NCBI GenBank assembly: GCA_944389075.1
Contig: CALXLA010000044.1
Coordinates: forward strand, 26,365-90,364
DNA: 64,000 bases
Direction of reading: 5' to 3'
Source of the DNA: an uncultured Spirochaetaceae bacterium
GTDB lineage: Bacteria > Spirochaetota > Spirochaetia > Sphaerochaetales > Sphaerochaetaceae
How positions within the stretch are numbered: position 1 is the stretch's first letter; each line of letters opens with the position of its first letter. Under the pieces are notes generated by a model. That model was not told the origin of the DNA, did not search any database, and saw nothing but the letters and a program-made list of their open reading frames with translations. Positions 10,935 to 31,493 of the stretch are shown one piece after another. The translations under genes and the position numbers were made by a program.

Positions 10935-11590
10935 AGTGGTGGACAGAAAAGAAAATAGAATGGTACCGGAGGGCCTCAGAGGAAAGCCTTTGCCACAGAC
11001 AGCTTGCTTCTGTTCTTGAAAGGCATCTTATAAAGGAACTGAACATACTCGAGCTTGGCTGCGGGCTGGGATATGAGGCTGAGATACTGGCGGATGATGG
11101 CTATATGATAAAAGCCGCGGATACCGATGAGATGGTACTTCAGGAAGCATACCGGCGCTCAGGCAAGAATATCTACATCAATCTAGATGCATACGGCCCG
11201 CTTCCATATCCTGATCAGATACTGATGATATCATTCGGTCATCTTGACTTGCCAGATTCAGTCAGGCATTTCCTGTCTTATACAAAAAGGATTGTCACTG
11301 CGGTTCCGCATCACAACAGCCAGGGATTCCAGACAAGGGAAAACAAGATCTCCAGAATACTCAAGGCAATAGATGAAGCAGGTGCTGAATACGAAGAGGA
11401 GATCATAGTACTGGATTTCAGCCAGCCTCTTCTCTCGCTGAGTGATGCGGAGGAATACATATCAGCATGCTATCCGGAAGAGCATAAGGAAAGGCTTCTG
11501 AAGCTTGTGGAAGAGAATGATGGAAAATACCCATACATTCTCAGGAACCGCAAGGAATTCTCAATACTGACAATCACATCGGAGGAATAA
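10919..11590 (+). CDS. Class I SAM-dependent methyltransferase in the transport operon
   Basis: A 223-residue Rossmann methyltransferase. Motif I is ILELGCGLGYEAEIL at about residues 41-55, followed by an acidic residue at the end of strand 2 (KAADTDE) that would bind the SAM ribose. The substrate is not recognisable. Two starts are possible: 10919 with a good GAGAGG site, or 10931 giving an ATGA overlap with the ATPase stop. Its stop shares one base with the ATG of the binding-protein gene, so it is fully embedded in the importer operon. A metabolic link to the imported ligand is likely but unidentified. Confidence 0.75.
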   Translation: MRSGMKWWTEKKIEWYRRASEESLCHRQLASVLERHLIKELNILELGCGLGYEAEILADDGYMIKAADTDEMVLQEAYRRSGKNIYINLDAYGPLPYPDQILMISFGHLDLPDSVRHFLSYTKRIVTAVPHHNSQGFQTRENKISRILKAIDEAGAEYEEEIIVLDFSQPLLSLSDAEEYISACYPEEHKERLLKLVEENDGKYPYILRNRKEFSILTITSEE

Positions 11591-12603: not shown

Positions 12604-12634
12604 CAATCTTTGAGATATTGATATTCTCAACAAA

Positions 12635-12662
12635 CGGCGGACAATGTCCGCCGCTTTTATTT
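12635..12662 (+). terminator. Rho-independent terminator of the importer operon
   Basis: Perfect eight-pair stem CGGCGGAC / GTCCGCCG with an AAT loop, followed by CTTTTATTT, 32 bases after the binding-protein stop. Confidence 0.85.
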
Positions 12663-12894
12663 CAGACTTTCCCAAGAAATTTCATTATAGGCATATATCT
12701 TAGTTTTCACATATAGAAGAATACTCGTTTATTTTATGGAAACGAACTGCAACACTTAGTCTTTGACTGGAACTGATTTCTCATACAGATGCTCCGGTAT
12801 TATGTCACTACTGAACATTATATGAATATTTTCTTTTTATTCTGACAATATCTGTCATACATGGAAGATATCCTGCTCATATGGAGAAAAAATT

Positions 12895-15156: not shown

Positions 15157-15175
15157 TTAATATCCACAAAAATCA

Positions 15176-15208
15176 GGCTCTTGCATGGTACAATTGCAAG
15201 GGCCTTTA
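15176..15208 (+). terminator. Rho-independent terminator after the DnaE-like gene
   Basis: Ten-pair stem GGCTCTTGCA / TGCAAGGGCC (one G-U pair) with a 9-base loop, followed by TTTAT. Further right, two small hairpins (ACTTCC/GGAAGT near 15231 and CTTAG/CTAAG near 15251) have no clear role. Confidence 0.75.
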
Positions 15209-15312
15209 TCGGAAAACCATATAAATGATACTTCCTAATTCGGAAGTTTCTTAGGATCAATCTAAGTCCGCCAATTTATGCTCGCCTTTTAATCGTCTAC
15301 TAGCTCAGATTA

Positions 15313-15343
15313 TTGTACTCATGTTTATAAATAAACTTATAAT
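15313..15343 (+). promoter_or_regulatory. Possible promoter of the AT-rich orphan gene
   Basis: A perfect TATAAT at 15338-15343 with TTGTAC 19 bases upstream (spacing slightly long), 18 bases before the start codon at 15362. In such AT-rich DNA a chance match is possible. Confidence 0.4.
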
Positions 15344-15361
15344 CATACGAAGAAGGTCGAT

Positions 15362-17023
15362 ATGATTGTAAAAGAAATATTCTCAAATAATGGAATCCAT
15401 TTACACTACAAATACTTTGGAATAACAGATTTTGCTACTTATTTTGAATTAAATTCATTATTAGAACATTTGCCTTTTGTTATTGATACTATTTCAAAAC
15501 TTGAATTAACATGTCTGGATACAATAGATAATTTAAAAGATTTTATATTCATAAAGAAAATCTCTTTGTTTGCTGAAATTAAGAGTCAAATAAAACATGA
15601 TTATCAACAGGATTTTGGATACTTACTAAAATACACAAATAATATACTTAATAATTTTACAAAAAAAGACATAATAAAGTGCATCAATCAATCATATCAG
15701 GATTTTTTTACAGAGAAAGATAATTATGATGATTTCTATTCAGTCATTTTCGATTATATGATATCTTTTCAGACAGGAATATCCAAAAAAGTTTTTTTGC
15801 TATTTGCAAAGAAAAAGAAGAACTATATTCTAAATAACTTTGGAAAACTCGGATCAATAAAATACAACATTGAATTCTTTAACGAGATTCTCCCTCCTTC
15901 TTTCAGTTTAAAAGAAGCTAAAGAACTTGGTCTGAATCGAGTATTCTCAATATTCTCAAATATCTTAACAGATAAACTCTCACCTTTTAAAGAAAATATA
16001 AACATCTTCTTAGATAGGATCATCAATGAAGAAATTGAAATATTAAATAACGAACAAACCGTAATTACTAACATTATGCATATTGAAAGTGAATATCGTA
16101 TAATACTATCCTTTTTAAAGAAAATTAAACATCATAGGACTTTTCAACTCCAAAAATACCAGAATCACATCAATTCGATTCTAGATAATCATCTTTTAAA
16201 TCATGGTCAATCTTTTTCATTTACATTGCAAATTCAGGAAATCCTAATGGAAATAAAGAATATAGAAAACTGGCAATTGAAAATATTAATGTTAACCCAT
16301 GAATATAGAGAAATTGATAAAAAATTCAGAAGCATTCTCTCGTGCAAGTCCAAAGGAAAACAACACATAATAGATTATGTATCAAGCAATATACCTACAA
16401 ATGAATATTTTACTTTTTCACATCAGCAATTTCTAGAATTAATATATATTAATGGGGCAGCAATAATTCAAAGTCTTTGGCATGATTCTGAATTATATCC
16501 ATCACTTAAAACATGGTATAGATCAATACTGATAGCTATTGATGAATCAATTGAAAGTGGCGAAAATTTAGCGGATGATATTAATATTGCATTTGCTTTA
16601 TTGGATTGTATTTTACTTGGAAACAATAAAGATCAAGATTTATTGATAGCCAATTCCTATGGCGCTTGTATATTTATATGTGCAATGATTGAAAAGCTTT
16701 TAAGAGTTATATTCATTGATATTAATTCATTCAAAGGTATTTATGTTCCAGTTGAATACATACAATTAGGTTCTTTATTAAATTCACTTGAGATAAAAAA
16801 TATATTAGGAGAAAATCATACAAAAACACTTTTATTCTATTTAGGACATGCCGATGCAGAACATATTGGATATAATATTCGTAATTCATTGGCACATTTA
16901 ACAGAATACAATCTGAAAAATATAACACCACTTCAAGCTTGCAGCCTTTTTTATATTTATACCGATATTTTAAATTCCATAATGCTCAATAGATTCTATT
17001 CAGATCACTATATTCCAGAATAA
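15362..17023 (+). CDS. AT-rich orphan protein with HEPN-like RNxxAH motif
   Basis: A 553-residue, mostly helical, lysine/asparagine/isoleucine-rich protein with no family I can name with confidence. The C-terminal 130 residues resemble the DUF4209/HEPN type: an all-helical segment (DDINIAFALLDCILLG, then ANSYGACIFICAMIEKLLR), then R507-N-S-L-A-H512, an Rx4H motif like the RNase active site of HEPN toxins. No signal peptide or membrane segment is seen. Base composition is strikingly AT-rich (roughly 30% GC by eye) against about 48% around it, indicating recent transfer. AGAAGG precedes the ATG. It lies between the DnaE-like gene and the guaA island. An RNA-targeting defence or toxin role is inference from the motif only. 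Confidence 0.6.
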   Translation: MIVKEIFSNNGIHLHYKYFGITDFATYFELNSLLEHLPFVIDTISKLELTCLDTIDNLKDFIFIKKISLFAEIKSQIKHDYQQDFGYLLKYTNNILNNFTKKDIIKCINQSYQDFFTEKDNYDDFYSVIFDYMISFQTGISKKVFLLFAKKKKNYILNNFGKLGSIKYNIEFFNEILPPSFSLKEAKELGLNRVFSIFSNILTDKLSPFKENINIFLDRIINEEIEILNNEQTVITNIMHIESEYRIILSFLKKIKHHRTFQLQKYQNHINSILDNHLLNHGQSFSFTLQIQEILMEIKNIENWQLKILMLTHEYREIDKKFRSILSCKSKGKQHIIDYVSSNIPTNEYFTFSHQQFLELIYINGAAIIQSLWHDSELYPSLKTWYRSILIAIDESIESGENLADDINIAFALLDCILLGNNKDQDLLIANSYGACIFICAMIEKLLRVIFIDINSFKGIYVPVEYIQLGSLLNSLEIKNILGENHTKTLLFYLGHADAEHIGYNIRNSLAHLTEYNLKNITPLQACSLFYIYTDILNSIMLNRFYSDHYIPE

Positions 17024-17286: not shown

Positions 17287-17357
17287 AATCGTTATAAAAC
17301 AATTCCTTGCAATATAACGATTCTCCTAATAGCGATAAAATCAAATCATTCCCACTC
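17287..17357. repeat. Left direct repeat (att-like) of the guaA island
   Basis: This 71-bp sequence matches 29881-29951 at 68 of 71 positions in the same orientation. The right copy contains the last codons and stop of guaA plus its 3' flank, so this left copy is a duplicated guaA 3' end with no gene attached (read on the minus strand it still gives GAGTGGGAATGA, Glu-Trp-Glu-stop). It contains a perfect 10-bp inverted repeat AATCGTTATA / TATAACGATT (17287-17296 and 17313-17322). Such duplications are left by site-specific integration. Confidence 0.9.
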
Positions 17358-17482
17358 AATAATTTCATTGTCTCATACACTATTTATGGTGTCATAGAAT
17401 CTCAAATAAACACTATATATCTCATTCATCTCACAAGTATCAGATGGTTCAGGAATTTTTGGGGCCAAATCTGGGTCAGGCA

Positions 17483-17782
17483 TTAAGCTTCACCATTATT
17501 GGGGATGCGAGTAGGCACGAGAGTGTAACCTATTGCATTCAGTATCTTACATACTGTAGCAAAAGAAGGATTGCCATTCGGAGAAAGTGCCTTATAAAGT
17601 CCTTCTCTGGTAATTCCCGCTTCTTTTGCAGTCTTTGTCATACCTTTTGCTCTTGCTACTGTATCTATCGCTTTGATAAGCGCAGCAGAATCATTCTCCT
17701 TTGCCACCTCATTAAGATAAAGAGTCTGAAGCTCATCAGTATCAAGGTATTCAGCTGCATCAAATTTAGTCAGTTTCTCCAT
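17483..17782 (-). CDS. Antitoxin of a type II toxin-antitoxin pair (HTH)
   Basis: A 99-residue helix-turn-helix protein of the HigA-like 'addiction module antidote' family. It starts MEKLTKFDAAEYL, the usual N-terminus of this family. The DNA-binding part is residues ~45-90: KGMTKTAKEAGITREGLYKAL then NPSFATVCKILNAIGY. It would neutralise the toxin encoded upstream and autoregulate the pair. The ATG at 17782 is chosen because GGAG lies seven bases upstream, inside the toxin gene; the frames overlap by 17 bases. It is the first gene inside the left island end, where it could stabilise the island. Confidence 0.85.
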   Translation of the reverse strand: MEKLTKFDAAEYLDTDELQTLYLNEVAKENDSAALIKAIDTVARAKGMTKTAKEAGITREGLYKALSPNGNPSFATVCKILNAIGYTLVPTRIPNNGEA

Positions 17783-18074
17783 CTTCATACTCCTTTGCAA
17801 GTTTCTTTGCTGTCTTTATATCATCACTCTGCGTTTTCTTATCTCCACCAACAAGAAGGATGATAATCTCTGAACTGCGGTCCATGAAATACACGCGGTA
17901 TCCACTCCCTACATCAATCCGAAGTTCAAAAACCTTATCACCAACGAACTTCGAATCTCCGAAATTACCTTGCTCAAGCCTTTCAATCCTGCGCGCTATT
18001 GCAACCTTAGCTAAGTTATCCTTCAACTTTCTAAACCACTTTGCAAAACGCTCAGTTTGTAAGACTTCTTTCAT
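17766..18074 (-). CDS. RelE/HigB-type toxin
   Basis: A 102-residue toxin of the RelE/ParE fold ('addiction module killer' family). Conserved pieces are FAKWFRKLKDNLAKVAIARRIERL, GDSKFVGDKVFELRIDVGSGYRVYF and IILLVGGDKKTQSDDI, with the arginine and lysine-rich surface used for mRNA or ribosome contact. Probable action is mRNA cleavage at the ribosome, as for relatives. A start at 18092 would add six residues; MKEVLQTERF at 18074 matches the family start better. Neither start has a Shine-Dalgarno sequence, and a good promoter ends seven bases before 18074, suggesting a leaderless message. The toxin gene precedes the antitoxin, as in higBA. Confidence 0.88.
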   Translation of the reverse strand: MKEVLQTERFAKWFRKLKDNLAKVAIARRIERLEQGNFGDSKFVGDKVFELRIDVGSGYRVYFMDRSSEIIILLVGGDKKTQSDDIKTAKKLAKEYEDGETD

Positions 18075-18080
18075 GCTTAT

Positions 18081-18109
18081 AGTGTAAACCATAGTTCACA
18101 TTCAGTCAA
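18081..18109 (-). promoter_or_regulatory. Promoter of the toxin-antitoxin operon
   Basis: Minus-strand TTGACT (18104-18109), a 17-base spacer, then TACACT (18081-18086). Transcription would start about at 18074, the first base of the toxin ATG. Confidence 0.65.
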
Positions 18110-18944: not shown

Positions 18945-21900
18945 TTATATTCTCTTATTCCGAGCGTGATTGATTTCAGCACGCACCGTGTCCACGCAAT
19001 AATCCATATCTTCAATCAGCTCTTTGACAACAAAACGCATCGGTTTCCAGCCATATTGTTCAATAGCTGCATCTCTGCGGAAGTCACTTTCCTTTCTCGA
19101 CCCATCAGCATTGAAATGATACTGATACCCATCCACCTCGATATCAAGCCTCACAAATTCATCCTGATATGCCATATCAAACCGGTATCCGAGAAAACTG
19201 TATTGCGGTTTTGTTTCAATTCCAGCTTTTTGAAGAGCGTTGAATAAGGCCTCTTCCCATACAGAATCAAATGTGACATTGTCATCTCTCTTTCTGGAGT
19301 ATTCACTAAGCATACTCAGTATTTTCGAAGATGAATTTCTGCTGAGAGTCTTGTTTCCTATGACAATAAGACACGCCTTAGCTCTGCTTAATGCAACATC
19401 ATAGATGTTATTGTTCTGCTCATTGGTAAGATACCAGATCTGTTTATTCCTCATATCAGGAAGATACCCAAGGACAAACAGAATCACATCACACTCCCCT
19501 CCTTGAAATCCATAGGCTGTGTCAACTTTGACATCATTATGGGAGAACCCATTCCCGTAGATTTCATTTGCAAGTCTGTTTGCCACTGCACGTAAAGGAG
19601 TAACAACACCGATAGAACCATTGTAATTTTTGTTCTTAAAATCCTTAAGAAACCCAATGCAAGTACTGATTTCGTGATCAAGGCCATCTTCAATATTTAT
19701 CCATCGCAGGTGGTCACCTGTTTCAAATCCAGGAGGATAATTCAAAGGCCGTTCATTTGTACGAATACGAAGATTTCCATTGTAAAAGGCCTTATTGATA
19801 AAACCAGCTATGTCTGCGTCGCAACGGAAATGTTCTTTCAGCATTGATGGTTTAGCAAAACGAGAAGCAATTGAATAGGCTGTGTTTGTATAAAACTCAA
19901 AAGAGGCCGTATTCGAATCAACAGAATAGTACTTTCCAAGAATCATATCATGCCGCCTCTTGCTCATCGTGATGATGGGCCGAAACTGCTCTGGGTCGCC
20001 AATAATCATTGCTCTCTTGGCTCTGAATAACATTGGAATCACGGAGACACAATCACACTGGGAGGCCTCATCGATAACAACCATATCGAAGACTCCGCCT
20101 GCAAGAGGAGAAGCATGGCGTGCTGAAAGAAGAGAAACAGCCCATGCAGGAACTACTGAAAACATCTTCTGCTCAGCAGTTACCATTTTAGATTGCCTAT
20201 CCTTAGAAAGGGCTTTCCATGTCGGGCCTGATTTGCTTGCAGCAGATCTCTGCTGCCCGATGAATTCATAGTCCTTTTCATCAAGAGTGCGTATCTGCTC
20301 CCCCCATTTATACAGAAGAGAGGAGGAAGCATTGTCAATCATATTCTTCATCGCAGCATTGTAATCGTCGCTATAATCTTTGCTTCCTGAAACTGCAGTA
20401 TGGTATTCAGCATATGCTTTATTGACTTCTGCTTTTGCTTTTCTGTATGAAGCTGAGGCCGTGACCAACTCCTTGCAGATAGCATCTAGCTTCTTATCCT
20501 TATCAATCGAGATACTTGAAATCAGATGATATTTCTCGACAAGCTGAATTCTCGCATCCTCAATCTTCTTGCCATGGAGCATTCGATACAAGAACCCGGC
20601 AATTCCAGCTTTCTTCGAAGAATCAACTATAATGGCCAATCTGAGTATTTCACTGAGGGTTTGATCTTTGAAGACCGAAGAATCAGCATGAACAAGAATG
20701 GACTTCAGATGGGTAAGCTCTGATATATATTTCTGCTCAATCTTCAGATATGACGATACAATGTTATTCAATTCCTCTGAGACTTCTTTGATCTCAGAGA
20801 CGGTATTTGCAGAATCCAAGACTATCTTGTCAGAAGCTTCACCGGAGGCTGGAACTGCAGAAAGAATTGTCCGCGCTTCCTCTTCTGGCTTCACCTGATA
20901 CCAGTCAGTCAATTCTCCATCATCGCTATTACAATATCGTATGAGCGGAATGGACCTGGATTCTGAAAGAAGTGTATCTGCTCTATCATGAATCGCCTCA
21001 AGAGCAGCGTGGTTACGGCTAGAGAAAACAACTGACATGCCTCGATATACACAGTTGGCTATAAGATTGACAGCAACCTGTGATTTACCTGTTCCCGGTG
21101 GGCCTTGAAGCACTGTGAGATGATGAGATAATGCATCCTCGACCGCTTCAAGTTGCTCACTATTGCTAGTCAAGAAAGGAATTGCTGAGATTCTGGCTTC
21201 ATTTGTATCTTTGTAAGGGTGCTTGCGGAAAATGTATGCAAGCGCAGATTTGTCAAGCTCTGCAGCATCCGCCTGTTCTATCATCTTAAGTTCACGGATA
21301 AGGCCGTTATTGAAAACAGTATTGTCTGTTCGGAAAAGAATCACAGTATTGCATAGCTTCCTTCTCTTCTGTCTGCTCGATACTTTCGGAAGTGTCTGTA
21401 CAGTGCGTTCAGGATCGAATTCATCGGCAATGTTTGAATATGTTGAGTATCCGATGATTGTTCTTAGAGCATGAGCCAGATTCAGTCCATCATCTTCCTC
21501 AAGTTCATCAAAGAGTTCATCAAGCTGTGATAAATCACAGTTACGGGTTATCCACTCAAAATTGTAAGAGGCATTCTTGAATAAAGGCTTGATGCGTACT
21601 TTGTAATCCTTGCCAGGCCTATCATCTTTTGAAAAATAATCACAAAAGCATATAGGGATCAGGAATAGTGGAAGATAGTCATAGACTTCTCCGTTCTCAT
21701 CAAACCGAGCTTCAACTGGATATCCTATACAGGCTTCAGGCGAAGACTCATTACTTTGAGCAATAGCATGAAGCATCTTTGATTCTCTTGCCTTAAGAGA
21801 TATGACGAAATCAGGTTCAAAATCGCTTTTATGAGAAGGAAACCATAATGATGGTATTGTTGGAGGAATATAGAACTGCTGTCCTTGCTTTGTCACAGAT

Positions 21901-22244
21901 AAATGGAATTCCTTACGGTCCTCAGTCTTCACACATTCAATGTAATAAGATAGAAGCTTCCTAAAATCAGTCCACTCTGCCTCTGTGCTCATCGTATTTC
22001 CAGAAGCCCCCATCCCAAGTCTGTTTTTGGGGAAAATCTGTAGACCAATGTCCGCAATGCCAACAATCATTCCATTCGATTTGATTACATTCTTCCGTTT
22101 CATAAGATGAAGAAGAGATGGAGCATCACCGGGGCGTATTCTGTTAAGCAAGTCTATGAAATCATCATAGGTATAGTTACGGGGTTTACCGCCTCTGACT
22201 TCCCATTGCTCAAGTACTGCTATGATTTCTTCTCTTTCAGTCAT
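18945..22244 (-). CDS. UPF1/DNA2-type SF1 helicase fused to a Vsr/DUF559-like endonuclease
   Basis: A 1,099-residue protein, last gene of the island operon. Residues 1-355 are an uncharacterised N-terminal region. The SF1 helicase follows: Walker A GPPGTGKS (381-388), FSSRNHAALE (Ia, 407-416), a long helical insertion (about 475-660), Walker B MVVIDEASQ (721-729), IGDPEQFRP (748-756), LKEHFRC, then DTAYGFQGGECDVI and NVALSRA-type motif VI read as DVALSRAK. The last 110 residues look like a PD-(D/E)xK nuclease of the Vsr/DUF559 kind: WEEALFNAL, GYRFDMAY, LDIEVDGYQYH, FRRDAAIEQYGW. UPF1-type helicases move on RNA or DNA; the fused nuclease would cut the displaced strand. It starts nine bases after the Hsp70-like gene. 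Antiviral effector role is inferred from context. Confidence 0.82.
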   Translation of the reverse strand: MTEREEIIAVLEQWEVRGGKPRNYTYDDFIDLLNRIRPGDAPSLLHLMKRKNVIKSNGMIVGIADIGLQIFPKNRLGMGASGNTMSTEAEWTDFRKLLSYYIECVKTEDRKEFHLSVTKQGQQFYIPPTIPSLWFPSHKSDFEPDFVISLKARESKMLHAIAQSNESSPEACIGYPVEARFDENGEVYDYLPLFLIPICFCDYFSKDDRPGKDYKVRIKPLFKNASYNFEWITRNCDLSQLDELFDELEEDDGLNLAHALRTIIGYSTYSNIADEFDPERTVQTLPKVSSRQKRRKLCNTVILFRTDNTVFNNGLIRELKMIEQADAAELDKSALAYIFRKHPYKDTNEARISAIPFLTSNSEQLEAVEDALSHHLTVLQGPPGTGKSQVAVNLIANCVYRGMSVVFSSRNHAALEAIHDRADTLLSESRSIPLIRYCNSDDGELTDWYQVKPEEEARTILSAVPASGEASDKIVLDSANTVSEIKEVSEELNNIVSSYLKIEQKYISELTHLKSILVHADSSVFKDQTLSEILRLAIIVDSSKKAGIAGFLYRMLHGKKIEDARIQLVEKYHLISSISIDKDKKLDAICKELVTASASYRKAKAEVNKAYAEYHTAVSGSKDYSDDYNAAMKNMIDNASSSLLYKWGEQIRTLDEKDYEFIGQQRSAASKSGPTWKALSKDRQSKMVTAEQKMFSVVPAWAVSLLSARHASPLAGGVFDMVVIDEASQCDCVSVIPMLFRAKRAMIIGDPEQFRPIITMSKRRHDMILGKYYSVDSNTASFEFYTNTAYSIASRFAKPSMLKEHFRCDADIAGFINKAFYNGNLRIRTNERPLNYPPGFETGDHLRWINIEDGLDHEISTCIGFLKDFKNKNYNGSIGVVTPLRAVANRLANEIYGNGFSHNDVKVDTAYGFQGGECDVILFVLGYLPDMRNKQIWYLTNEQNNNIYDVALSRAKACLIVIGNKTLSRNSSSKILSMLSEYSRKRDDNVTFDSVWEEALFNALQKAGIETKPQYSFLGYRFDMAYQDEFVRLDIEVDGYQYHFNADGSRKESDFRRDAAIEQYGWKPMRFVVKELIEDMDYCVDTVRAEINHARNKRI

Positions 22245-22253
22245 CTGCTTTCC

Positions 22254-24782
22254 CTATAGATCTGCTGTAGGTATATTGAGATTGCCTTTGCCATTCAGAT
22301 ACAAATTAAGAATCGACCCCCATCTCTTTACATCCCCAAAACATGAGTCATTCCTTCTTGCAATATTTCTCAGTACAGATTCATCATGCAGCAATCCAAC
22401 ATTCATCAATACAGATTCTGATAAGTACTGATAAAAGCACTTCTCAAAAGCCTGCCTTTGAGACAGCTTCAAACCAATTGCTTTATAAATAAGTAACACT
22501 TCAGAATCCTTGTAATCGGAGATATTCAGAAGACTTATGTACCTATCAATAAATAGCCTGACAGGCTCAGTGCCATTTGACGATAACATATTAAGAAGAA
22601 TGTAATAGCTTCCATCTACAGTAATGACATCATTTTCATCCTGTTTGCAGAACTCAGAGTAAACGCTCCTGAGTTTCATCATAAAACAGAGAATTTTACA
22701 TATATTCGAACGAATGCCTGATCCGCTTTGACTTGAGTAATAAGAAGAAATGAGCATATTCAGAGTTGTATATATCTGTGAAAGATCCTGAGCCAGTATC
22801 TCGAAGACATCGGGGTTGCTCATCATTATCTGATAGGCAGCACGATACCAGTGATTTGCCCCACTGACTCCTTGCTCAAAGCTTCCTGTAGATAACTTAC
22901 GGAAGAATGCTTTCATGAATAGAACCCCATCATCCTGTGATGTGAACATGTTCGCACAGAATGATGCTTTTCCAGCATCCAATTTAAAGTATTTAGTCGA
23001 ACATCTCTGTCCGAGATCTCTTATATATTTTCTTACATATTCTGTAACATGAGGAACCTGCAGAGGATGATATGTCCAGGCTGCTAGGGTGATAAGATCG
23101 GAAGAATGAGCTACCTCGAAACGTTCATCGATTGTATTAAGAAATTTCAGGCATGCTTCCTTCTGATCCGGGTCTTCAGGCAATCCATCATCATCTTCAG
23201 TCGGTACACCAAATGTGTTATAGCGTTCAAATCTGGTAATATCCTTAGCTGCTGGATGAGCCCAGACCGATTTATTGATATCAGCCCCCTGCAAGAAAGC
23301 ATTATTAAGTATGAAGCATCGAATCGGAAGATATACTGAATCTGTAAGATATCCGGATTTCTTTCTGACATAAGGAATATCAGGAGGAAAGGAACGTTCC
23401 ATTTCGCTCTCTAGTGTTTCTAGCGTCTTATCAGAATCCTCCATCTTCTCCCAGTCGAGCTGGAGTCCCCTGAATATCGTTTCATACTTATGGTCTTTAG
23501 CAACGATATCAACAGAGGCTCTTCCCTGTCCAGGAATCAGAGATGGTTGCAGTTCAAGTTCAATTGTCTTTCCATGGATTTCTTTTCTAAGTTCATCTGG
23601 GATATCAAAAGGCTGGAAAAGGCTTTTAAGCGGAGCATTGCGTTTCTGCTCTCCCAATCGAAGATAGAATTCGACGTTTTTTGTCTCAGGATGAAGATAG
23701 ATTCCATCAACAGTCTTACCAACAATCCTCTTACTGCTCCTGAGCCTCTGATCTGCTTCGATAAGAGTTTTGAAATGATATCGCTCACTCCTGTCTGCAA
23801 CAACAAGGCTAAGAGCCTCGCACTCATCAAAGTAAGCCGTTATTTCATGCTCCATGCAATTTGCAAAACAGGCCGCACCATAAGCAATGGAATCACCGGT
23901 GGTATCTATTATCGGATTTTCGAACCATCTCTTAAGGGTGTCTCTAACCTCTGAACTCAGATTCCCAACAGCAATCACAGTTGTTATGCCTGTATTGCTG
24001 AGAAGTCTTATCCCATACAGGGGATCAATCGGGGCTATTGCTCTCTCAGAAGCCGGTTGCAGCATGCCAGCCTTTATTTCATAAGGAATCTGAGGCTTAA
24101 GAACATCAGCTTTCAATACTCTGTTGAATGGATAGTTCTCTGATCTGACATATCCAGTATCAGAGTTGAGGAATAGCCTATGTGCCGGAATCCAGAAACC
24201 ATCACATTCCTCAATCCAGAGATATGATATGGTTGTTCCAGTTGGCTCTATATCAACAACGGCAACCTTTTCGTGTTCACTGAATTCTTTCTGAATTCTC
24301 TCAGCATTGCCTAGAAAAGCCGCTACTGAACGCCATAAAAGGACTGGGGTTTTATGAAGCCCATCTGTAGCAGCTTTTATCAGTTTGTTCTGGAAATCGG
24401 CAGGCAGACGATCTGGGACAGGAATCACCAGTTTCTCTGTCTTATCTATCTTTTTTCCTGCAAGAGGAAGGAAAACAGCTCTGAACCAATTCCGAAGACT
24501 CTCAGTATCTTCGCGGTCACTACCTGATAATGCCAATATCTTTCTTAAATCAGCAGCCTTGGAAGCATCAATGGAAAACCCTTGGGCATCTTTGATGATT
24601 AGATCATCCAGCACTATATGTTCTGAATCGATGACATAAGGCTGTTTATTTGAACTGCTATCAGGAGAAATCAATATCAGAGGAAGCTTCAGCTCATCAC
24701 TTTTTATGGCATCCGTTTTTTCAGATGGCTCATAGCCGTAATACTTTCCTCCCCAGAGGTCCATAACAGAAAATGAACTCAT
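22254..24782 (-). CDS. Hsp70/actin-fold protein of the island operon
   Basis: An 842-residue protein whose first ~330 residues look like a diverged Hsp70 nucleotide-binding domain. They include a degenerate phosphate-1 strand (SVMDLWGGKYYGYE, 5-18), PVPDRLPADFQNKLIKAA (121-138, like the Hsp70 'VPA.F...qr' segment), phosphate-2 VAVVDIEPTGTTISYLWI (173-190) and an adenosine-type motif IAVGNLSSEVRD near 270. A beta-rich middle (about 390-460) could be a substrate-binding-like part, and the C-terminal 370 residues are helical and unrecognised. No membrane segment. The ATG overlaps the upstream stop (ATGA) with a strong GGGGG site. Hsp70-like partners occur in some McrB-type defence operons and are thought to sense translation products or RNA; that role is inference. 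Confidence 0.65.
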   Translation of the reverse strand: MSSFSVMDLWGGKYYGYEPSEKTDAIKSDELKLPLILISPDSSSNKQPYVIDSEHIVLDDLIIKDAQGFSIDASKAADLRKILALSGSDREDTESLRNWFRAVFLPLAGKKIDKTEKLVIPVPDRLPADFQNKLIKAATDGLHKTPVLLWRSVAAFLGNAERIQKEFSEHEKVAVVDIEPTGTTISYLWIEECDGFWIPAHRLFLNSDTGYVRSENYPFNRVLKADVLKPQIPYEIKAGMLQPASERAIAPIDPLYGIRLLSNTGITTVIAVGNLSSEVRDTLKRWFENPIIDTTGDSIAYGAACFANCMEHEITAYFDECEALSLVVADRSERYHFKTLIEADQRLRSSKRIVGKTVDGIYLHPETKNVEFYLRLGEQKRNAPLKSLFQPFDIPDELRKEIHGKTIELELQPSLIPGQGRASVDIVAKDHKYETIFRGLQLDWEKMEDSDKTLETLESEMERSFPPDIPYVRKKSGYLTDSVYLPIRCFILNNAFLQGADINKSVWAHPAAKDITRFERYNTFGVPTEDDDGLPEDPDQKEACLKFLNTIDERFEVAHSSDLITLAAWTYHPLQVPHVTEYVRKYIRDLGQRCSTKYFKLDAGKASFCANMFTSQDDGVLFMKAFFRKLSTGSFEQGVSGANHWYRAAYQIMMSNPDVFEILAQDLSQIYTTLNMLISSYYSSQSGSGIRSNICKILCFMMKLRSVYSEFCKQDENDVITVDGSYYILLNMLSSNGTEPVRLFIDRYISLLNISDYKDSEVLLIYKAIGLKLSQRQAFEKCFYQYLSESVLMNVGLLHDESVLRNIARRNDSCFGDVKRWGSILNLYLNGKGNLNIPTADL

Positions 24783-26101
24783 AATGTTAACCCCCTGAAG
24801 AAAGAAGATGACACAATTGCGTTATATATGTCATGGGCAATATCATCACTGACAGACTTACCGACAAAGCGCATTGATTCCGTCTCTGCTCTGTACTCAT
24901 TTCCTGATTCTGAATAGATTATCGATAAGCCTCTTCTTTCTGCTGTGAAAACATCCAGATGTGCATAATCAGGAATCAGATAGCATCGGATTACATGCTT
25001 TACATCTCCCATAACCGTATTAAGGATGTTTCCATCACGGCATCTGAACTCTATTCCCTCATCATTATCCATAATCCGGAAAGAACGATTAGTTTCACCG
25101 CAATAGTCAAAATATGCTTGATTGGGATCTGAACAGAATGTTCCATTCTCTGAAGCATACTGGAACATCCAGATATCATGACTGATTGCACCTTCGGTAT
25201 GAATTCTGTCATCGATTGCAGCAATTGCAATAAGCTTAGCTGTCTCATAGAACATCCTATGCCGATAACGCCACATAGTTTCAATCTCAGTAATATGATT
25301 CGCCAGACGAAGATAGCTGAGCCAGATTGCGTGATAGAATCTATTGTTCTGCAAAGTATAATTCGGTACCGGCACAGAATGAAGCATCCTGACTTCATTG
25401 AATTCTGGCATTGAAAGGCCTTTGCTTACAAGTGAGACGAATCTGCGCACAAGAGCAACTTTCTTAGAGTTCCTGTATCTATCTTCTCTACCATATTTTG
25501 CAATATATCGCCGGCCTTCATTGAGACTATAAATCATATACTGCTTTAGAACTCTGTTTTCGAGTGTATCCATTGATTCATGCCTCACAACCCCCATAAG
25601 CTTCTGCTTTGTTCCACCTTTCTCGACAGCAGTGTAGCCAGGCTGCCTTGCAAGCCATCTCATGCAATAGCTGTCTATCTGCTGGATATTGCCAAGAGGA
25701 ACAAGCTCCTGATTTCGTCGCAGGACTTTTCGAGGACTCTGTAGAAGATGTTGAAGTGAGATGAAATCGTTATCTGCTATCTGCACTATCATCTTCGAAG
25801 GAGGCTCATCAGAATAAGACGTATTAGAACAGTAATCGAGAATAGAGGAAAGCTTTACAGGAAGCTCCTTGCGTTTATTCCTGATCCTATAAGGAAGAGC
25901 CAGGTCAGTTTCTGCCTCGTCGAGGATTGCTGTATAGAACTCACGCATATCATCCATGACATCGAATTTCAGCAGAATCTCATCGGATTGGCTGGAAGAG
26001 GCATAATATCGCCTGACTTCACGCGTATCAGTATAAATCTCTTCTGTGAAGCGCTCATTGATTGATCCTGGATAAATGCGGAAGTCAGATAATATGGACA
26101 T
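24779..26101 (-). CDS. DUF2357 / McrC-N-terminal-like protein
   Basis: A 440-residue protein of the DUF2357 kind, the domain that stands in front of the nuclease in many McrC proteins. Diagnostic segments are QPGYTAVEKGGTKQKL, then RHESMDTLENRVLKQYM (about 180-196), the conserved 'dT.ENR.lk' helix. The C-terminal part (HVIRCYLIPDYAHLDVFTAE) shows no convincing PD-(D/E)xK triad, so it may be a McrC without a cutting domain. The ATG at 26101 is preferred over 26128: it lies just after the McrB stop with an AGG at the right distance. It would link the McrB-like ring to its target or effector, as McrC does. Confidence 0.65.
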   Translation of the reverse strand: MSILSDFRIYPGSINERFTEEIYTDTREVRRYYASSSQSDEILLKFDVMDDMREFYTAILDEAETDLALPYRIRNKRKELPVKLSSILDYCSNTSYSDEPPSKMIVQIADNDFISLQHLLQSPRKVLRRNQELVPLGNIQQIDSYCMRWLARQPGYTAVEKGGTKQKLMGVVRHESMDTLENRVLKQYMIYSLNEGRRYIAKYGREDRYRNSKKVALVRRFVSLVSKGLSMPEFNEVRMLHSVPVPNYTLQNNRFYHAIWLSYLRLANHITEIETMWRYRHRMFYETAKLIAIAAIDDRIHTEGAISHDIWMFQYASENGTFCSDPNQAYFDYCGETNRSFRIMDNDEGIEFRCRDGNILNTVMGDVKHVIRCYLIPDYAHLDVFTAERRGLSIIYSESGNEYRAETESMRFVGKSVSDDIAHDIYNAIVSSSFFRGLTL

Positions 26102-26106
26102 CACGA

Positions 26107-28035
26107 TTACCTGCTGACACCCTTCCACTGGAAGAAGGTGTTGCTGTTCCTGCTGGAAATCACTTCTGAAAAAATCTTTGTAAGCTCATCATCTTTGACT
26201 TTTTCTATCGTGCCCAGCATTGAACGAAGCACATCAGAAACCGCCGATTCTGACATATCAACGCCATTCAGTTTCGGGAGTATCTTCATCTCTATCTGAT
26301 CAGCCAATGCTGCATTGAAGCTGGCTGGATCTTTATCAGCACCCGGATACATCGAGACATAAGTCTCTATTGATCTCCACACACGATAAGCGAATGGATG
26401 GTTAATCTTTGCCATATTCTGATTCAGTTCAGTCACTATTGAATCAAGCCTTTCCATCAGGTCTGGATGGAGTTTCTTTTCTTTGCAGAGCTTCTTCCAT
26501 GAACTGTACTGCATATATCTTCCATCATCAGGATACTTCTTGAAGAAAACATCATTGTCCATCTTGGCATTTATTGATTCAGGCATTCCGAATCGGAGCA
26601 CATTCGCCCTATCCATTACTTTATCTGATAGAGTCTGTGTCGTCTCATCCTCATTCATCGTTCCAACGAAGAGAGTATTGGAGTCAACAAACAATCGTCT
26701 TGCGGACTCTGAATCACCTATTGAACCACCTTCAATCTCAATCTCTGCTGTTTTTCTGACATCATCGTCAAATTTATCAGAGATACTCCTACGCTGTTCG
26801 AGCTTGCTCAGCATGTCGCTGAAGTAATACTCAACCCTTGCCAGGTTCATCTCATCTAGAAGCACGATGTTCATAGGAAGGGAGTCCTCTGTAGGATACT
26901 TCTTTATCACTTCCGCTTTATTGTTGAAGATATCAAACTGCCATAGCATTCTTGAAAGCTCGGTTGCTTTGTATCTGTTCTGCATGTAGTTGTAGAATCC
27001 GAACATATCCTGTGGGCTATCCCATCTTGGTTGAACAGCAACTGAAAGGAAATTCATTCCGAACGCCCGGGCATAGAGAGATGGCAAGAGACTCTTTCCT
27101 GTTCCTGAAATTCCTGCTAAGACAACAAGCGGAGAGGCGTCTTCAGCCTTGAGGCTGGTATGGAAAGCATTGATAGTCCTATCGCTGAAGATGATATTGC
27201 TATCCTTAAGAGCCTCTTTGAAGCCATTAAGCATACTCTCTTCATCTTCATCTTTCATTGGGATTGCGCCTTTGTCAAAATAAGGCCTATCCAGATCTTC
27301 CCATCTTGTCTTCTCAGCCTTTTCTCGTCCCTCTTCCTTAGCCCATTGAATCTTGGAAGCTTCAAGATCTGTCGTCAGTTTTTCAAGCTTCTGCCTACCC
27401 TGCTCATATTGAGTCTGGACTTCTTGGCTCTTTGCTCTTGCCTCCTCAGTCTGCCTTTCGAGTGAGTTCTTCTCTTCCTTAAGCTTCTGAATATCAAGCC
27501 TGAGATTATCAACTTGGATTTTTAGGCCTTCTATCTGTTTATCGAGTTCATTAATCTGATCGTTCTTCTTATTTATCTCAGTGATGAGTGAATCATGTTT
27601 CTCCTGCTGATCCTTGATCTCTTTATCAAGCTTATGCTGATTCTCCTGAAGTTCTGTAAGTTCCTCATTCTTCGTTTTAAGGTCATCATCAGCAGCTTGA
27701 AGCTTTGAGGTTATCTCTTTGATATCCTCATTCATCTTATCTATAAGAAGTTTCTTATCATCATAATCTTTCTGGAAATCATTGATGAATTTCTCCATTG
27801 CTTCTTTCTTGTCTATGATCTGCTGAACAGCAAGCTTCTCAGCTTCGAGCTGCTTAATCTGCTCTTTGACGTAGTAGTAGTTATCCCTAGCCGCTGCAAT
27901 TGCGCTTTCAAGCTTCTCTCTGGTCCGGTTGTATGGGTTCAATCTACGTGCTCTGAAGTACATGACACAGGAAAAAACAACAATGATAAGAAGAATGCCT
28001 ACTGAGACTATTGCCGTTAATATTACAAGAATCAT
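26107..28035 (-). CDS. Membrane-anchored coiled-coil McrB-like AAA ATPase/GTPase
   Basis: A 642-residue protein. Residues 2-27 are a transmembrane helix (ILVILTAIVSVGILLIIVV), and residues ~36-240 a long charged coiled coil. The AAA module runs from about 265 to 625: Walker A GISGTGKS (308-315), QPRWDSPQDMFGFYN, Walker B VLLDEMN (391-397), and VGTMNEDETT (457-466), matching the MNxxD signature of McrB GTPases where TMNxxDR is canonical. McrB proteins form hexameric GTP-driven rings that work with McrC. Here the usual DNA-reading N-terminus is replaced by the coiled coil and membrane anchor. Its ATG overlaps the previous stop by four bases with GGAGGT upstream, so production is coupled to the coiled-coil partner. 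Confidence 0.8.
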   Translation of the reverse strand: MILVILTAIVSVGILLIIVVFSCVMYFRARRLNPYNRTREKLESAIAAARDNYYYVKEQIKQLEAEKLAVQQIIDKKEAMEKFINDFQKDYDDKKLLIDKMNEDIKEITSKLQAADDDLKTKNEELTELQENQHKLDKEIKDQQEKHDSLITEINKKNDQINELDKQIEGLKIQVDNLRLDIQKLKEEKNSLERQTEEARAKSQEVQTQYEQGRQKLEKLTTDLEASKIQWAKEEGREKAEKTRWEDLDRPYFDKGAIPMKDEDEESMLNGFKEALKDSNIIFSDRTINAFHTSLKAEDASPLVVLAGISGTGKSLLPSLYARAFGMNFLSVAVQPRWDSPQDMFGFYNYMQNRYKATELSRMLWQFDIFNNKAEVIKKYPTEDSLPMNIVLLDEMNLARVEYYFSDMLSKLEQRRSISDKFDDDVRKTAEIEIEGGSIGDSESARRLFVDSNTLFVGTMNEDETTQTLSDKVMDRANVLRFGMPESINAKMDNDVFFKKYPDDGRYMQYSSWKKLCKEKKLHPDLMERLDSIVTELNQNMAKINHPFAYRVWRSIETYVSMYPGADKDPASFNAALADQIEMKILPKLNGVDMSESAVSDVLRSMLGTIEKVKDDELTKIFSEVISSRNSNTFFQWKGVSR

Positions 28036-29306
28036 CTTGCACCTCCTTCGGATGCATCTTCACTGAGTTGGTTTGCTTTTGCTTCAAGCTGTCCGATTGT
28101 TCGATTGAGTTCTGCAATTCTGCTATCAAGAGAACTTATCTCTGCTCGTTTCTGAGTCAGTTCAGCATCAGCTGCTGATATAGAAGTTGCGACTACGGAT
28201 AGTGCTGATTGCCTAGAAGTGAAATCAGACACAGATGACTGTAAAGTCTCTATCTGTTCATTTAGATTATTCTTGGTATTCTCAAGAACCGCGACATCAG
28301 ATTCAAGAGAAGATTGCTGTACAGAAAAATCTGAAACCTGCTTTTGAAGAGTATTATATTCTGCTGTAAGAGAAGCTAGCCTAGCATTTGTCGAAGCCAA
28401 TGTACTTTCAGCTTCACTGTTATCAGCAATGAAAGAAAGAAGCTCACTTTTCTGCTGCGTAAGAGATGAAACATCACCGGAAAGAATTTCCTTTGTGTTA
28501 GAAAGCGCTGCGATTTCTGAATTCAAAGCATTCCTTTGTGATGTAAGGTCTGACACAATAGTAGCAAGATTCTGATTCTGATTCTGAAGGTCAGAAAGAT
28601 TGTCCTGAGCATCTGCAACCTGTGAATCAAGCAGGTTCTTGGTATTCTGCTGTCTTGATATCGAATCATTGAGAATATTAAGAGAGGACTGTGTATCGCT
28701 GACAGACTGACGAAGTGCTTCGTACTGATCATTCAGTTCATCATTGCGGGATGTCAAAGCTGTGTTCAACCCTGCCAATCTTGAATTCTCACTCTGCAGG
28801 TTGCTTTGAGTATCCATCAATCCATTAACATCATTCTCCAATGCGGTTTTCTGCTCATTCAGAACATTGTTTGCATTCTGAAGATCTATACTTCTCTGTG
28901 CCTCATCTGAAAGATCGGCTATCGTCTGATTCAGGGATTCAATCTCATTCTGCAGAGCATTTCGCTGATTCGTGAGGATAGATATCTTGTCTTCCTCACT
29001 TACTCTTAGCTCTTCCATATGTGAATTGAAGGTTGTTCGTTCTTCCTCTACACTGACTCTGAATTCCGACAGCGTGTTTTCCCACTCAAGGAAATCCTCG
29101 GAATAATAAGTGATTGCAGCAATTGCAGCAATTGCAGCCAGCACAGCAATAAGCACAGCCAAACAGTAAATCAGTTTACCTCTCTGACTATCTTTTATTT
29201 CCTTCGCAGTAGGTTCGAAATCGAAATCAATCACATTCGAAGCCTGCTCCTGCTCATCCTCCAGATTCTGCTCTGAAAAGTCTGTATCATTTGGATTCTG
29301 TGACAT
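28032..29306 (-). CDS. Membrane-anchored coiled-coil protein, first gene of the island operon
   Basis: A 424-residue protein with an acidic N-terminus (1-42), one transmembrane helix (45-68, LIYCLAVLIAVLAAIAAIAAI) and an almost unbroken coiled coil (about 75-415) rich in Gln, Asn, Ser and Leu heptads. No enzyme motif is present. The topology, one helix then a long rod, parallels the N-terminus of the downstream McrB-like protein, so the two rods may assemble with each other at the membrane. The start has GGGAGAAGGG upstream. Coiled-coil partners are a hallmark of CoCoNuT-type systems, but this gene could also be a generic spacer or sensor. No clear promoter was found in front. Confidence 0.7.
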   Translation of the reverse strand: MSQNPNDTDFSEQNLEDEQEQASNVIDFDFEPTAKEIKDSQRGKLIYCLAVLIAVLAAIAAIAAITYYSEDFLEWENTLSEFRVSVEEERTTFNSHMEELRVSEEDKISILTNQRNALQNEIESLNQTIADLSDEAQRSIDLQNANNVLNEQKTALENDVNGLMDTQSNLQSENSRLAGLNTALTSRNDELNDQYEALRQSVSDTQSSLNILNDSISRQQNTKNLLDSQVADAQDNLSDLQNQNQNLATIVSDLTSQRNALNSEIAALSNTKEILSGDVSSLTQQKSELLSFIADNSEAESTLASTNARLASLTAEYNTLQKQVSDFSVQQSSLESDVAVLENTKNNLNEQIETLQSSVSDFTSRQSALSVVATSISAADAELTQKRAEISSLDSRIAELNRTIGQLEAKANQLSEDASEGGAR

Positions 29307-29880: not shown

Positions 29881-29951
29881 AATCGTCATAAAACAATTCT
29901 TTGCAGTATAACGATTCTCCTAATAGCGATAAAATCAAATCATTCCCACTC
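29881..29951. repeat. Right direct repeat (att-like), overlapping the guaA 3' end
   Basis: Matches 17287-17357 at 68 of 71 bases. It includes the last four codons' worth of guaA (Glu-Trp-Glu-stop) and about 59 bases of 3' flank, so the integration regenerated a complete guaA. The inverted repeat seen in the left copy is present with one mismatch. Confidence 0.9.
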
Positions 29952-31493
29952 TATCGTTGCTGGTGGTTTTGATGTTACATCATAGAGGACTCTGTTAACG
30001 CCTTTGACCTCATTGCAGATTCTGGAAGAAGCTCTCTGAAGGACATCATAAGGCATCCTGTACCAGTCAGCTGTCATAGCATCCTCTGAAGTGACTGCAC
30101 GGAGAGTACAGACTTCCCTGTATGTCCTCTCATCACCCTGCACGCCTACGCTCTTCACAGGAAGAAGATCTGCGAATGCCTGCCAGATTTTATCATAGAG
30201 TCCAGCCTTGCGGATCTCATCGATGAAAATCGCATCAATATCACGGAGAGTATCGAGGCGCTCCTTAGTAACCTCTCCGATGCATCTCACGCCAAGGCCA
30301 GGACCTGGGAACGGATGACGGTACACAAGCTCATCAGGAAGACCGAGCTCCTTTCCAAGTGCCCTTACCTCATCCTTGAAAAGATCCTTCAGAGGCTCAA
30401 GAAGCTGCCACTTCAGATCCTCAGGAAGACCGCCGACATTATGATGTGATTTGATTGTCGAGGACGGACCGCCGAATGGCGACTTCGACTCAACAACATC
30501 AGGATACAGCGTGCCCTGAGCCAGGAATGAGATATCCCCGCACTTCCTTGCCTCCCTGTAGAATGTATCGACAAAGAGCTTTCCGATTATCTTCCTCTTG
30601 CTCTCAGGCTCAGTCACGCCCTTGAGCGCTGCAAGGAAATCATCCTCAGCATCAGCATACTGAAGCCGCATGCTGAAGTTCTTCGAGAAAAGATCTATTA
30701 CAGACTGCGCCTCATTCTTGCGAAGCATTCCGTTATTCACGAACACACAGACAAGCTGATCACCGATTGCCTTATGGATAAGGACAGCAGCAACAGATGA
30801 ATCGACTCCTCCTGAAAGACCGCAGAGAACAGTCTTGTTGCCTACAGTCCTGCGGATATCCTCAATGGCATCGTTGACGAATGAGCCCATGTTCCAGTCA
30901 GCTCTTGCTCCTACGATATCAAGGACGAAAGAGCGGATCATTTTCTCGCCTTCAACGGAATGCACGACCTCCGGATGGAACTGCACGCCATAGAACTTGC
31001 GGGCCTTATCCTCCACAGCAGCATATGGGCATGTCGGAGTCGTAGCTGTGACAGTGAAGCCCGGAGCCATTCTATCGACACTGTCACCATGGCTCATCCA
31101 TACCTGGCTTCTGTCGCTGACATTGCGGAAAAGAAGCGATGACTTATCCGCGATATCAATATTCTGAAGCCCGTATTCCTTCTTATCAGGACAAGTGACA
31201 TTTCCGCCAAGGCATTCTGTCATCACCTGAAGGCCATAGCAGATGCCGAGAATAGGGATTCCCAGCGAGAATATCGCACTGTCAGGTCTGGGAGAGCCTG
31301 GAGTCTTAACGGAAGCAGGCCCGCCCGAGAATATGATTCCCTTAGGCCCGATGCTTCTCACTTCTTCCGCGCTGATCGTGAAAGGCACAATCTGGCTGTA
31401 GACACCGCACTCCCTGACACGCCTTGCTATAAGCTGGCTGTACTGTGCGCCGAAATCGAGAACGAGTATGCAATCATGATCTGATACTGCCAT
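29940..31493 (-). CDS. guaA: GMP synthase (glutamine-hydrolysing)
   Basis: A 517-residue two-domain GuaA. The class I glutamine amidotransferase domain shows GGPASV, the nucleophile in GICYGLQ (residue ~85) and FHPEV (His-Glu of the triad, ~170). The ATP-pyrophosphatase domain has the PP-loop LSGGVDSS (~225-232). The C-terminal dimerisation domain ends in KPPATIEWE, the family-standard terminus. It converts XMP to GMP in purine synthesis. The C-terminal codons form the integration site of the island to its left. Upstream genes on the same strand (ECF transporter, 47 bases away) could be co-transcribed. Confidence 0.97.
   Translation of the reverse strand: MAVSDHDCILVLDFGAQYSQLIARRVRECGVYSQIVPFTISAEEVRSIGPKGIIFSGGPASVKTPGSPRPDSAIFSLGIPILGICYGLQVMTECLGGNVTCPDKKEYGLQNIDIADKSSLLFRNVSDRSQVWMSHGDSVDRMAPGFTVTATTPTCPYAAVEDKARKFYGVQFHPEVVHSVEGEKMIRSFVLDIVGARADWNMGSFVNDAIEDIRRTVGNKTVLCGLSGGVDSSVAAVLIHKAIGDQLVCVFVNNGMLRKNEAQSVIDLFSKNFSMRLQYADAEDDFLAALKGVTEPESKRKIIGKLFVDTFYREARKCGDISFLAQGTLYPDVVESKSPFGGPSSTIKSHHNVGGLPEDLKWQLLEPLKDLFKDEVRALGKELGLPDELVYRHPFPGPGLGVRCIGEVTKERLDTLRDIDAIFIDEIRKAGLYDKIWQAFADLLPVKSVGVQGDERTYREVCTLRAVTSEDAMTADWYRMPYDVLQRASSRICNEVKGVNRVLYDVTSKPPATIEWE

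What the first reader, a model, noticed from the sequence alone, without database searches (positions are those of the whole stretch)
18945..29306. Five-gene membrane-coiled-coil / McrB-like / Hsp70-like / helicase-nuclease system
One overlapping operon encodes a membrane coiled-coil protein, a membrane coiled-coil McrB-like AAA ATPase (GISGTGKS, MNED), a DUF2357 McrC-N-like protein, an Hsp70-fold protein and a UPF1/DNA2-type helicase with a terminal nuclease. The order and four-base overlaps show one functional unit. As I recall, the CoCoNuT branch of McrBC-type systems is defined by McrB GTPases with long coiled coils plus OB, Hsp70-like and RNase or nuclease partners, and is predicted to target RNA. 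This locus fits that branch, probably the Hsp70-containing type, with a distinctive layout. Its location in an att-flanked island with a toxin-antitoxin pair supports defence.
Basis: partly seen in the sequence, partly recalled or inferred. Interest (0 to 1): 0.93.

Follow-up and report, generated by a model that had tools for sequence, protein, structure and literature searches.

The report
Membrane-anchored CoCoNuT defence operon
A mobile island in this bacterium carries a five-gene operon from a branch of the CoCoNuT (McrBC-like) systems; two of its coiled-coil proteins are predicted to sit in the cell membrane, and it likely defends the cell by detecting foreign genetic material, which it would cut with a fused helicase-nuclease.

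The parts
28032..29306 (-). CnuA: 424-aa coiled-coil protein with one predicted membrane helix
   Evidence: ORF; coiled-coil family matches only; hydrophobic segment; profile built from A of seven loci finds it in the same place in other loci
29100..29174 (-). Predicted membrane helix of CnuA, residues 45-69
   Evidence: 19-residue hydrophobicity maximum 2.92; prediction only
26107..28035 (-). CnuB: 642-aa membrane helix + coiled coil + NxD McrB-type AAA domain
   Evidence: AAA_5, PDC-M26A 1.2e-33, GISGTGKS / LLDEMN / GTMNEDETTQ, trees
27955..28035 (-). Predicted membrane helix of CnuB, residues 1-27
   Evidence: hydrophobicity maximum 3.32; helix present in 118 of 120 listed relatives; prediction only
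24779..26128 (-). CnuC: DUF2357 McrC-like protein; likely real start ATG at 26101
22254..24782 (-). CnuD: Hsp70-fold protein with helical C-terminal part
23436..24782 (-). Hsp70-like NBD/SBD part of CnuD, residues 1-449
   Evidence: range of matches
18945..22244 (-). CnuH: UPF1-type SF1 helicase with C-terminal Vsr-like PD-(D/E)xK nuclease
   Evidence: AAA_11/AAA_12, MTES_1575, DUF559; alignment with Rhizobiales CnuH
18972..19256 (-). Nuclease domain of CnuH, residues 997-1091
   Evidence: MTES_1575 match; D1023, D1034, E1036, D1038, H1043 kept in 13 of 13 CnuH
29881..29954 (.). Island end, guaA side: guaA 3' end plus terminator (74-bp repeat)
17287..17360 (.). Island end, far side: second copy of the repeat, then chromosomal sequence as in relative G226
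17766..18092 (-). RelE/ParE-family toxin (HI1419 type) in the same island; probably not part of the system
   Evidence: TIGR02683 9e-38
17483..17800 (-). Antitoxin (HI1420 type)
   Evidence: TIGR02684 6e-30

Best explanation
The operon is a variant branch of the Type III-B CoCoNuT (McrBC-like) systems in which two coiled-coil proteins, CnuA and CnuB, are predicted to be anchored in the cell membrane, and it likely acts as an antiviral machine that would detect foreign nucleic acid with its Hsp70-like and McrC-like subunits and cut it with its helicase-nuclease. Shown here: the five genes and their order, their co-occurrence in other genomes, the NxD McrB phylogeny, kept helicase and nuclease motifs, conserved hydrophobic N-terminal segments, and the island at guaA; the Hsp70 and McrC folds are shown on predicted models. 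Inferred: CnuB forms an NTP-driven ring that CnuC switches on, as in McrBC; CnuA and CnuB hold the complex at the inner membrane through their helices and coiled coils; CnuD, whose nucleotide loops look degenerate, reads RNA, ribosomes or single strands instead of refolding proteins; this activates CnuH, which unwinds and cleaves. Whether RNA or DNA is cut, and whether the invader is cleared or the cell is stopped, is open; I lean to invading nucleic acid caught at the membrane.
For: Gene set of published Type III-B (PMC11090510). AAA tree: window with Rhizobiales III-B loci 91/89, window side 97/92, III-C next 98/86, III-A apart 90/64 (64-row tree agrees). Five parts together in 14 of 18 III-B-like loci. 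Hsp70 fold, McrC fold. Profile matches of C (100%) and D (99.5%) to Rhizobiales-side proteins. CnuB membrane helix in 19 of 19 III-B/III-C loci and 118 of 120 listed relatives, 0 of 7 III-A-like. Nuclease residues kept in 13 of 13. Island at guaA; Shedu and restriction genes beside the R. leguminosarum locus.
Against: No experiment. Membrane helices rest on a hydrophobicity scan, which also scores the P-loop region of three Rhizobiales CnuH at 1.9-2.0. CnuA's orientation cannot be told from charges. The IG-like N-terminal domain reported for III-B CnuC is not in the model. CnuD is not tied to the III-A CnuCD by profile (3.8%). Foldseek alone gives CnuC no match at E up to 0.001. Gene order does not follow the tree strictly: L065 has the window's order but groups with the Rhizobiales side. 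RNA or DNA as target untested.
Confidence: 0.6

Rival explanations
1. It is a DNA restriction system at the membrane: the anchored McrB/McrC ring and CnuH would act on phage or plasmid DNA as it enters, and RNA plays no part.
For: [quoted passage not shown] Founding McrBC cuts DNA (recalled). Membrane anchors would put it where DNA enters.
Against: UPF1-like helicase and Hsp70-like reader are read as RNA-linked in PMC11090510. CnuC shows no conserved nuclease motif.
Confidence: 0.3
2. A-B-C-D is a damage or infection sensor that would trigger self-destructive effectors; CnuH cleaves host nucleic acid and stops the infected cell, and other effectors can take its place.
For: In L066 an A-B-C-D module without CnuH on its 26.5-kb contig is flanked by two caspase-domain ORFs; in L067 a SNF2-type helicase ORF precedes A-B-C-D. 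PMC11090510 proposes an abortive back-up response.
Against: L066 is one locus, and L067 ends at D, so CnuH there is not excluded. 14 of 18 loci have CnuH.
Confidence: 0.25
3. It is not a defence system but an envelope or cell-division machine like the CoCoPALM systems.
For: CoCoPALM McrBs carry FtsB-like membrane and coiled-coil helices (PMC11090510). CnuA has weak ZapB and DivIC matches.
Against: No signal peptidase or pilus gene among the nine ORFs typed at 12.9-29.3 kb. CnuD and CnuH partners, tree placement with III-B, an island at guaA, CnuD in 1 of 392 genomes of its phylum. The cell-division matches are probably generic coiled coil.
Confidence: 0.04

Closest known systems
Type III-B CoCoNuT (Bell et al. 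2024, PMC11090510), represented here by plasmid loci of R. tropici, R. leguminosarum and S. meliloti (L035-L037)
   Same: Same five parts; McrB domains group together; CnuC and CnuD profiles match; CnuH aligns from helicase to nuclease; N-terminal membrane helices in A and B in both
   Different: Helicase last instead of first; CnuC about 110 residues shorter at the N-terminus and without a beta-sandwich there in the model
Type III-C CoCoNuT, Synechocystis pSYSX (L038)
   Same: NxD McrB with N-terminal hydrophobic helix and DUF2357 partner
   Different: Phospholipase D protein instead of a Vsr nuclease; my CnuD profile did not find its CnuD
Type III-A CoCoNuT, Enterobacter and Caballeronia plasmids (L039, L040)
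   Same: NxD McrB, DUF2357 and a UPF1-type helicase
   Different: No membrane helix in CnuB; long CnuC/CnuD fusion; PP2C and kinase (TerY-P-type) genes beside it
McrBC of E. coli and Thermococcus
   Different: NxD instead of NxxD motif (NxxD recalled and PMC11090510), coiled coil and membrane helix instead of a DNA-reading domain, no conserved McrC nuclease motif
PADLOC models: PDC-M26A (candidate) and Mokosh MkoA/MkoC
   Same: PDC-M26A 1.2e-33 to CnuB; MkoC 2.6e-37 and MkoA 5.1e-37 to CnuH
   Different: Partial matches, to part of CnuB and to the helicase of CnuH; CnuC had no PADLOC match and CnuD none below 0.03

Membership tests
CoCoNuT (all types) | McrB-type AAA domain with NxD instead of NxxD | tested here: met
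   GTMNEDETTQ in the window; NxD in all III-B, III-C and III-A reference rows
CoCoNuT (all types) | McrB fused to a long coiled coil | tested here: met
   SMC/Rad50-type coiled-coil matches over residues 34-241
CoCoNuT (all types) | Missing or inactive McrC nuclease offset by another nuclease in the operon | tested here: met
   No invariant acidic/lysine set in the C-terminal half of CnuC in 15 sequences; nuclease on CnuH
Type III-B CoCoNuT | GTPase phylogeny (basis of the published classification) | tested here: met
   Groups with Rhizobiales loci of III-B layout at 91/89; the published reference list was not available
Type III-B CoCoNuT | Gene content: separate CnuA, CnuB, CnuC, CnuD, and CnuH with fused Vsr-like nuclease, no separate CnuE | tested here: met
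Type III-B CoCoNuT | No TerY-P genes | tested here: met
   None among the nine ORFs typed at 12.9-29.3 kb
Type III-B CoCoNuT | CnuD with Hsp70-like NBD/SBD | tested here: met
Type III-B CoCoNuT | HEAT-like helical part in CnuD | tested here: inconclusive
   C-terminal part of the model is helical; HEAT identity not tested
Type III-B CoCoNuT | N-terminal IG-like beta-sandwich in CnuC (reported feature, not the basis of classification) | tested here: not met
   First 110 residues mostly helical in the model; shared region starts about 108 columns earlier than in the Rhizobiales side. Hence filed as a variant
Type III-B CoCoNuT | Inactivated PD-(D/E)xK fold kept in CnuC | tested here: inconclusive
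   Beta-rich C-terminal domain; only weak rows beyond McrC
Type III-B CoCoNuT | N-terminal wHTH and OB fold in CnuH | not tested
CoCoPALM | Associated signal peptidase / pilus assembly genes | tested here: not met
   None among the nine ORFs typed at 12.9-29.3 kb
Antiphage defence system | Protection against phage in an assay | not testable with these tools
   Inferred from island, site, neighbours and family only

The most novel reading that the evidence does not exclude
Type III-B (and III-C) CoCoNuTs are membrane machines: two single-pass coiled-coil subunits hold an McrB/McrC motor and an Hsp70-like reader at the inner membrane as a sensor core for incoming nucleic acid, and that A-B-C-D core drives exchangeable effectors (UPF1-Vsr helicase-nuclease, SNF2 helicase, caspases).
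Probability: 0.35. Interest if true: 0.78.

Novelty: new variant of a known kind. Interest (0 to 1): 0.52.

Why it matters
CoCoNuTs are a large predicted class of defence systems, and in my searches I found no experiment on Types I-III. A membrane helix in the III-B motor subunit in every III-B locus examined gives a concrete, cheap test of where these systems act, and it separates III-B/III-C from III-A. The five-gene set, described as mainly alphaproteobacterial, is here also in genomes labelled Akkermansia, Lentisphaeria and Clostridia, and one locus suggests that caspases can replace the nuclease.

Tried and rejected
CnuA as a periplasmic coiled-coil sensor: tempting from the window's charges, but the counts of positive residues differ between loci, so dropped. 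CnuD to III-A CnuCD by profile: 3.8% probability. CnuD in viral contigs and plasmids: no match. CnuB in phage records: two partial matches. The first tree (64 rows) had very long branches; it was rebuilt without eight rows (Eco_L044, Dei_L042, Kp_L041, L074, Rrhi_L043, L021, L075, and the duplicate P0071, 56 rows). The whole-CnuB profile hit 205 of 392 genomes, mostly by coiled coil; hits with AAA coverage were followed. The 117-of-117 charge count for CnuB is partly trivial, since its helix starts at or near residue 1. Promoter scan: 27 found against 28.2 in shuffles. tRNA and Rfam scans of the window: nothing. CoCoPALM identity: rejected on partners and tree. Papers: PMC11090510 abstract, sections 7 and 9 and found passages (figures and supplement not seen); PMC9376610, PMC12707154 and PMC12458937 found passages; PMC10542128 search listing only. 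That membrane helices in III-B are not in print rests (six places with 'transmembrane' in that main text, none on III-B) and searches. DnaK loop motifs and what founding McrBC cuts are recalled. No call names the host.

Full report
What is there. Five ORFs on the minus strand, in transcription order A (28032-29306), B (26107-28035), C (24779-26128), D (22254-24782) and H (18945-22244). B carries AAA_5, C DUF2357, H AAA_11/AAA_12 and MTES_1575; D has no Pfam match at E up to 1. The genes are tightly packed: 4-base overlaps at A/B and C/D, a 9-base gap at D/H, and at B/C either a 22-base overlap or, with the ATG at 26101, a 5-base gap.

Motifs. B has GISGTGKS and the shortened NxD motif as GTMNEDETTQ, the signature of the CoCoNuT branch (PMC11090510). 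H has GPPGTGKS and IDEASQ; the nuclease residues D1023, D1034, E1036, D1038 and H1043 are kept in 13 of 13 CnuH proteins from III-B-like loci.

Family. Published Type III-B has a coiled-coil-only CnuA, CnuB, CnuC, a separate Hsp70-like CnuD and a CnuH with a directly fused Vsr-like nuclease, and never TerY-P (PMC11090510). tblastn of B and of H in plasmids found both in R. tropici, R. leguminosarum and S. meliloti; these loci read H-A-B-C-D. The Synechocystis locus has a phospholipase D gene, as III-C should; the Enterobacter and Caballeronia loci have CARF, PP2C and kinase genes and a long DUF2357 protein, as III-A should. In the 56-row AAA tree the window and the Rhizobiales loci lie in one group (91/89), the window side 97/92, III-C next (98/86), the III-A rows apart (90/64); the 64-row tree agrees, with its long branches noted. 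Gene order does not follow the tree strictly: L065 has the window's order but groups with the Rhizobiales side. Profile comparison ties C and D to the Rhizobiales-side proteins (100% and 99.5%) but not D to the III-A fusion (3.8%). The Rhizobiales-side C has about 108 more columns before the shared region, where III-B is reported to carry an IG-like domain.

Conservation. Eighteen III-B-like loci were examined by profile: A-B-C-D-H as separate genes in 7 (window, L002, L003, L004, L064, L065, L123; the window genes); the same order with C and D fused in 2 (L061, and L063, where H is in pieces and A short); H-A-B-C-D in 5 (L035 with H split by an IS, L036, L037, L068, L118); no H seen in 4 (L062, L067 and L124 cut by contig ends; L066 over its whole 26.5-kb contig). 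L067's A was not found by profile; the ORF in its place has a membrane helix and coiled coil. By record title L002 is a Clostridia MAG, L003 an Akkermansia MAG and L004 a Lentisphaeria MAG. Frequency: CnuD in 1 of 392 genomes of the window's phylum, the host itself; CnuB at E up to 1e-60 in 12 of 387 genomes of the phylum of L003 (10 III-B-like, two of them the seeds; 2 III-A-like) and in 1 of 398 of the phylum of L002, the seed; at E up to 1e-90 in 3 of 179 and 5 of 188 in two class-wide draws that overlap these.

Membrane helices. A 19-residue hydrophobicity scan gives CnuB an N-terminal helix in the 16 loci (one is III-C; weakest L067, 1.58, just under the 1.6 used elsewhere) and in the three: 19 of 19. 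Of the 120 relatives listed (of 5509 found), 118 have it; the other two proteins are shorter at the N-terminus. Seven III-A-like CnuB have none, but one of these, L069, is a C-terminal piece. CnuA has one in 13 of 14 (the exception is a 232-residue piece) and in three of three more: 16 of 17; one A cut by a contig end was not counted. Against: the same scan scores the P-loop region of three Rhizobiales CnuH at 1.9-2.0, so hydrophobicity alone is not proof. CnuB's charges fit a cytoplasmic coiled coil and AAA domain; CnuA's orientation cannot be told. The main text of the CoCoNuT paper speaks of transmembrane helices for CoCoPALM and some accessory proteins only.

Island. A 74-bp repeat (95%) lies at 17287-17360 and 29881-29954. 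The right copy is the guaA 3' end with the sequence after it; the left copy continues into sequence that follows guaA in relative G226, the right copy does not; so the 12.5 kb between were inserted at the guaA 3' end. Both copies hold GAGTGGGA, the site used by GIsul2-type islands (PMC9376610 passages). Of 12 same-genus regions downstream of guaA that I fetched, ORFs of three were typed: G226 has a cytosine methylase with HEF_HK and response-receiver genes, G336 a PDC-S68 gene and SspB-, SspC- and SspA/DndA-like genes, G388 an ankyrin-repeat ORF. The R. leguminosarum locus has a Shedu gene and a restriction gene beside it. GC is 0.40-0.42 over the operon against 0.44-0.51 to its right.

Reading. 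This is a branch of Type III-B. It differs from the Rhizobiales loci by gene order and by the missing N-terminal part of CnuC, and it shares with them the membrane helices that the published text leaves out. Most likely it is a membrane-held surveillance complex: CnuB ring and CnuC activator as in McrBC, CnuD as reader, CnuH as unwinding nuclease. The step from anatomy to antiviral function, and the choice between RNA and DNA, are inference. The caspase-flanked A-B-C-D locus (L066) hints that the core can drive other effectors; it is a single case.

Noticed in passing
L066 4164-16597 (G552:C248): A-B-C-D module with no CnuH on its 26.5-kb contig; a TPR ORF and a caspase-FGE ORF (GHG and DAC motifs) lie directly upstream on the same strand and a caspase-Sel1 ORF directly downstream.
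   Followed up: partly
L067 4173-14121 (G480:C74): A SNF2-type helicase ORF (best PADLOC match DrmD, 7e-177) directly precedes A-B-C-D; the contig ends after D.
   Followed up: partly
L061 10300-13233; L063 5474-8623; protein P0012: CnuC- and CnuD-like parts in one ORF, an independent sign that the two proteins work together.
   Followed up: no
L118 1869-16694 (IMG/VR contig of 62 kb): H-A-B-C-D locus on a contig classed as viral, with a Phage_integrase ORF upstream and an RTasSbcB (DRT-type) match downstream.
   Followed up: partly
L106 9320-14859 and L109 1713-14369: The guaA 3' end in same-genus genomes carries other defence-type genes: cytosine methylase with HEF_HK genes in one, PDC-S68 and Ssp genes in another.
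   Followed up: partly
window 12895-17023: Low-GC stretch between the island and the gene at 11590-12603: a 753-aa diverged PHP/DNA polymerase III alpha ORF below family cut-offs for the full enzyme, and a 553-aa ORF without a family; in relative G226 the orthologue of the 11590-12603 gene lies next to the guaA-site genes.
   Followed up: no
NC_005232.1 (pSYSX) 11771-13495 and 66489-68213: The Synechocystis plasmid has two equally scoring CnuB matches.
   Followed up: no
L002 8298-11951: CnuH of the Clostridia MAG runs more than 100 residues beyond the nuclease (1217 aa against 1099 in the window).
   Followed up: no
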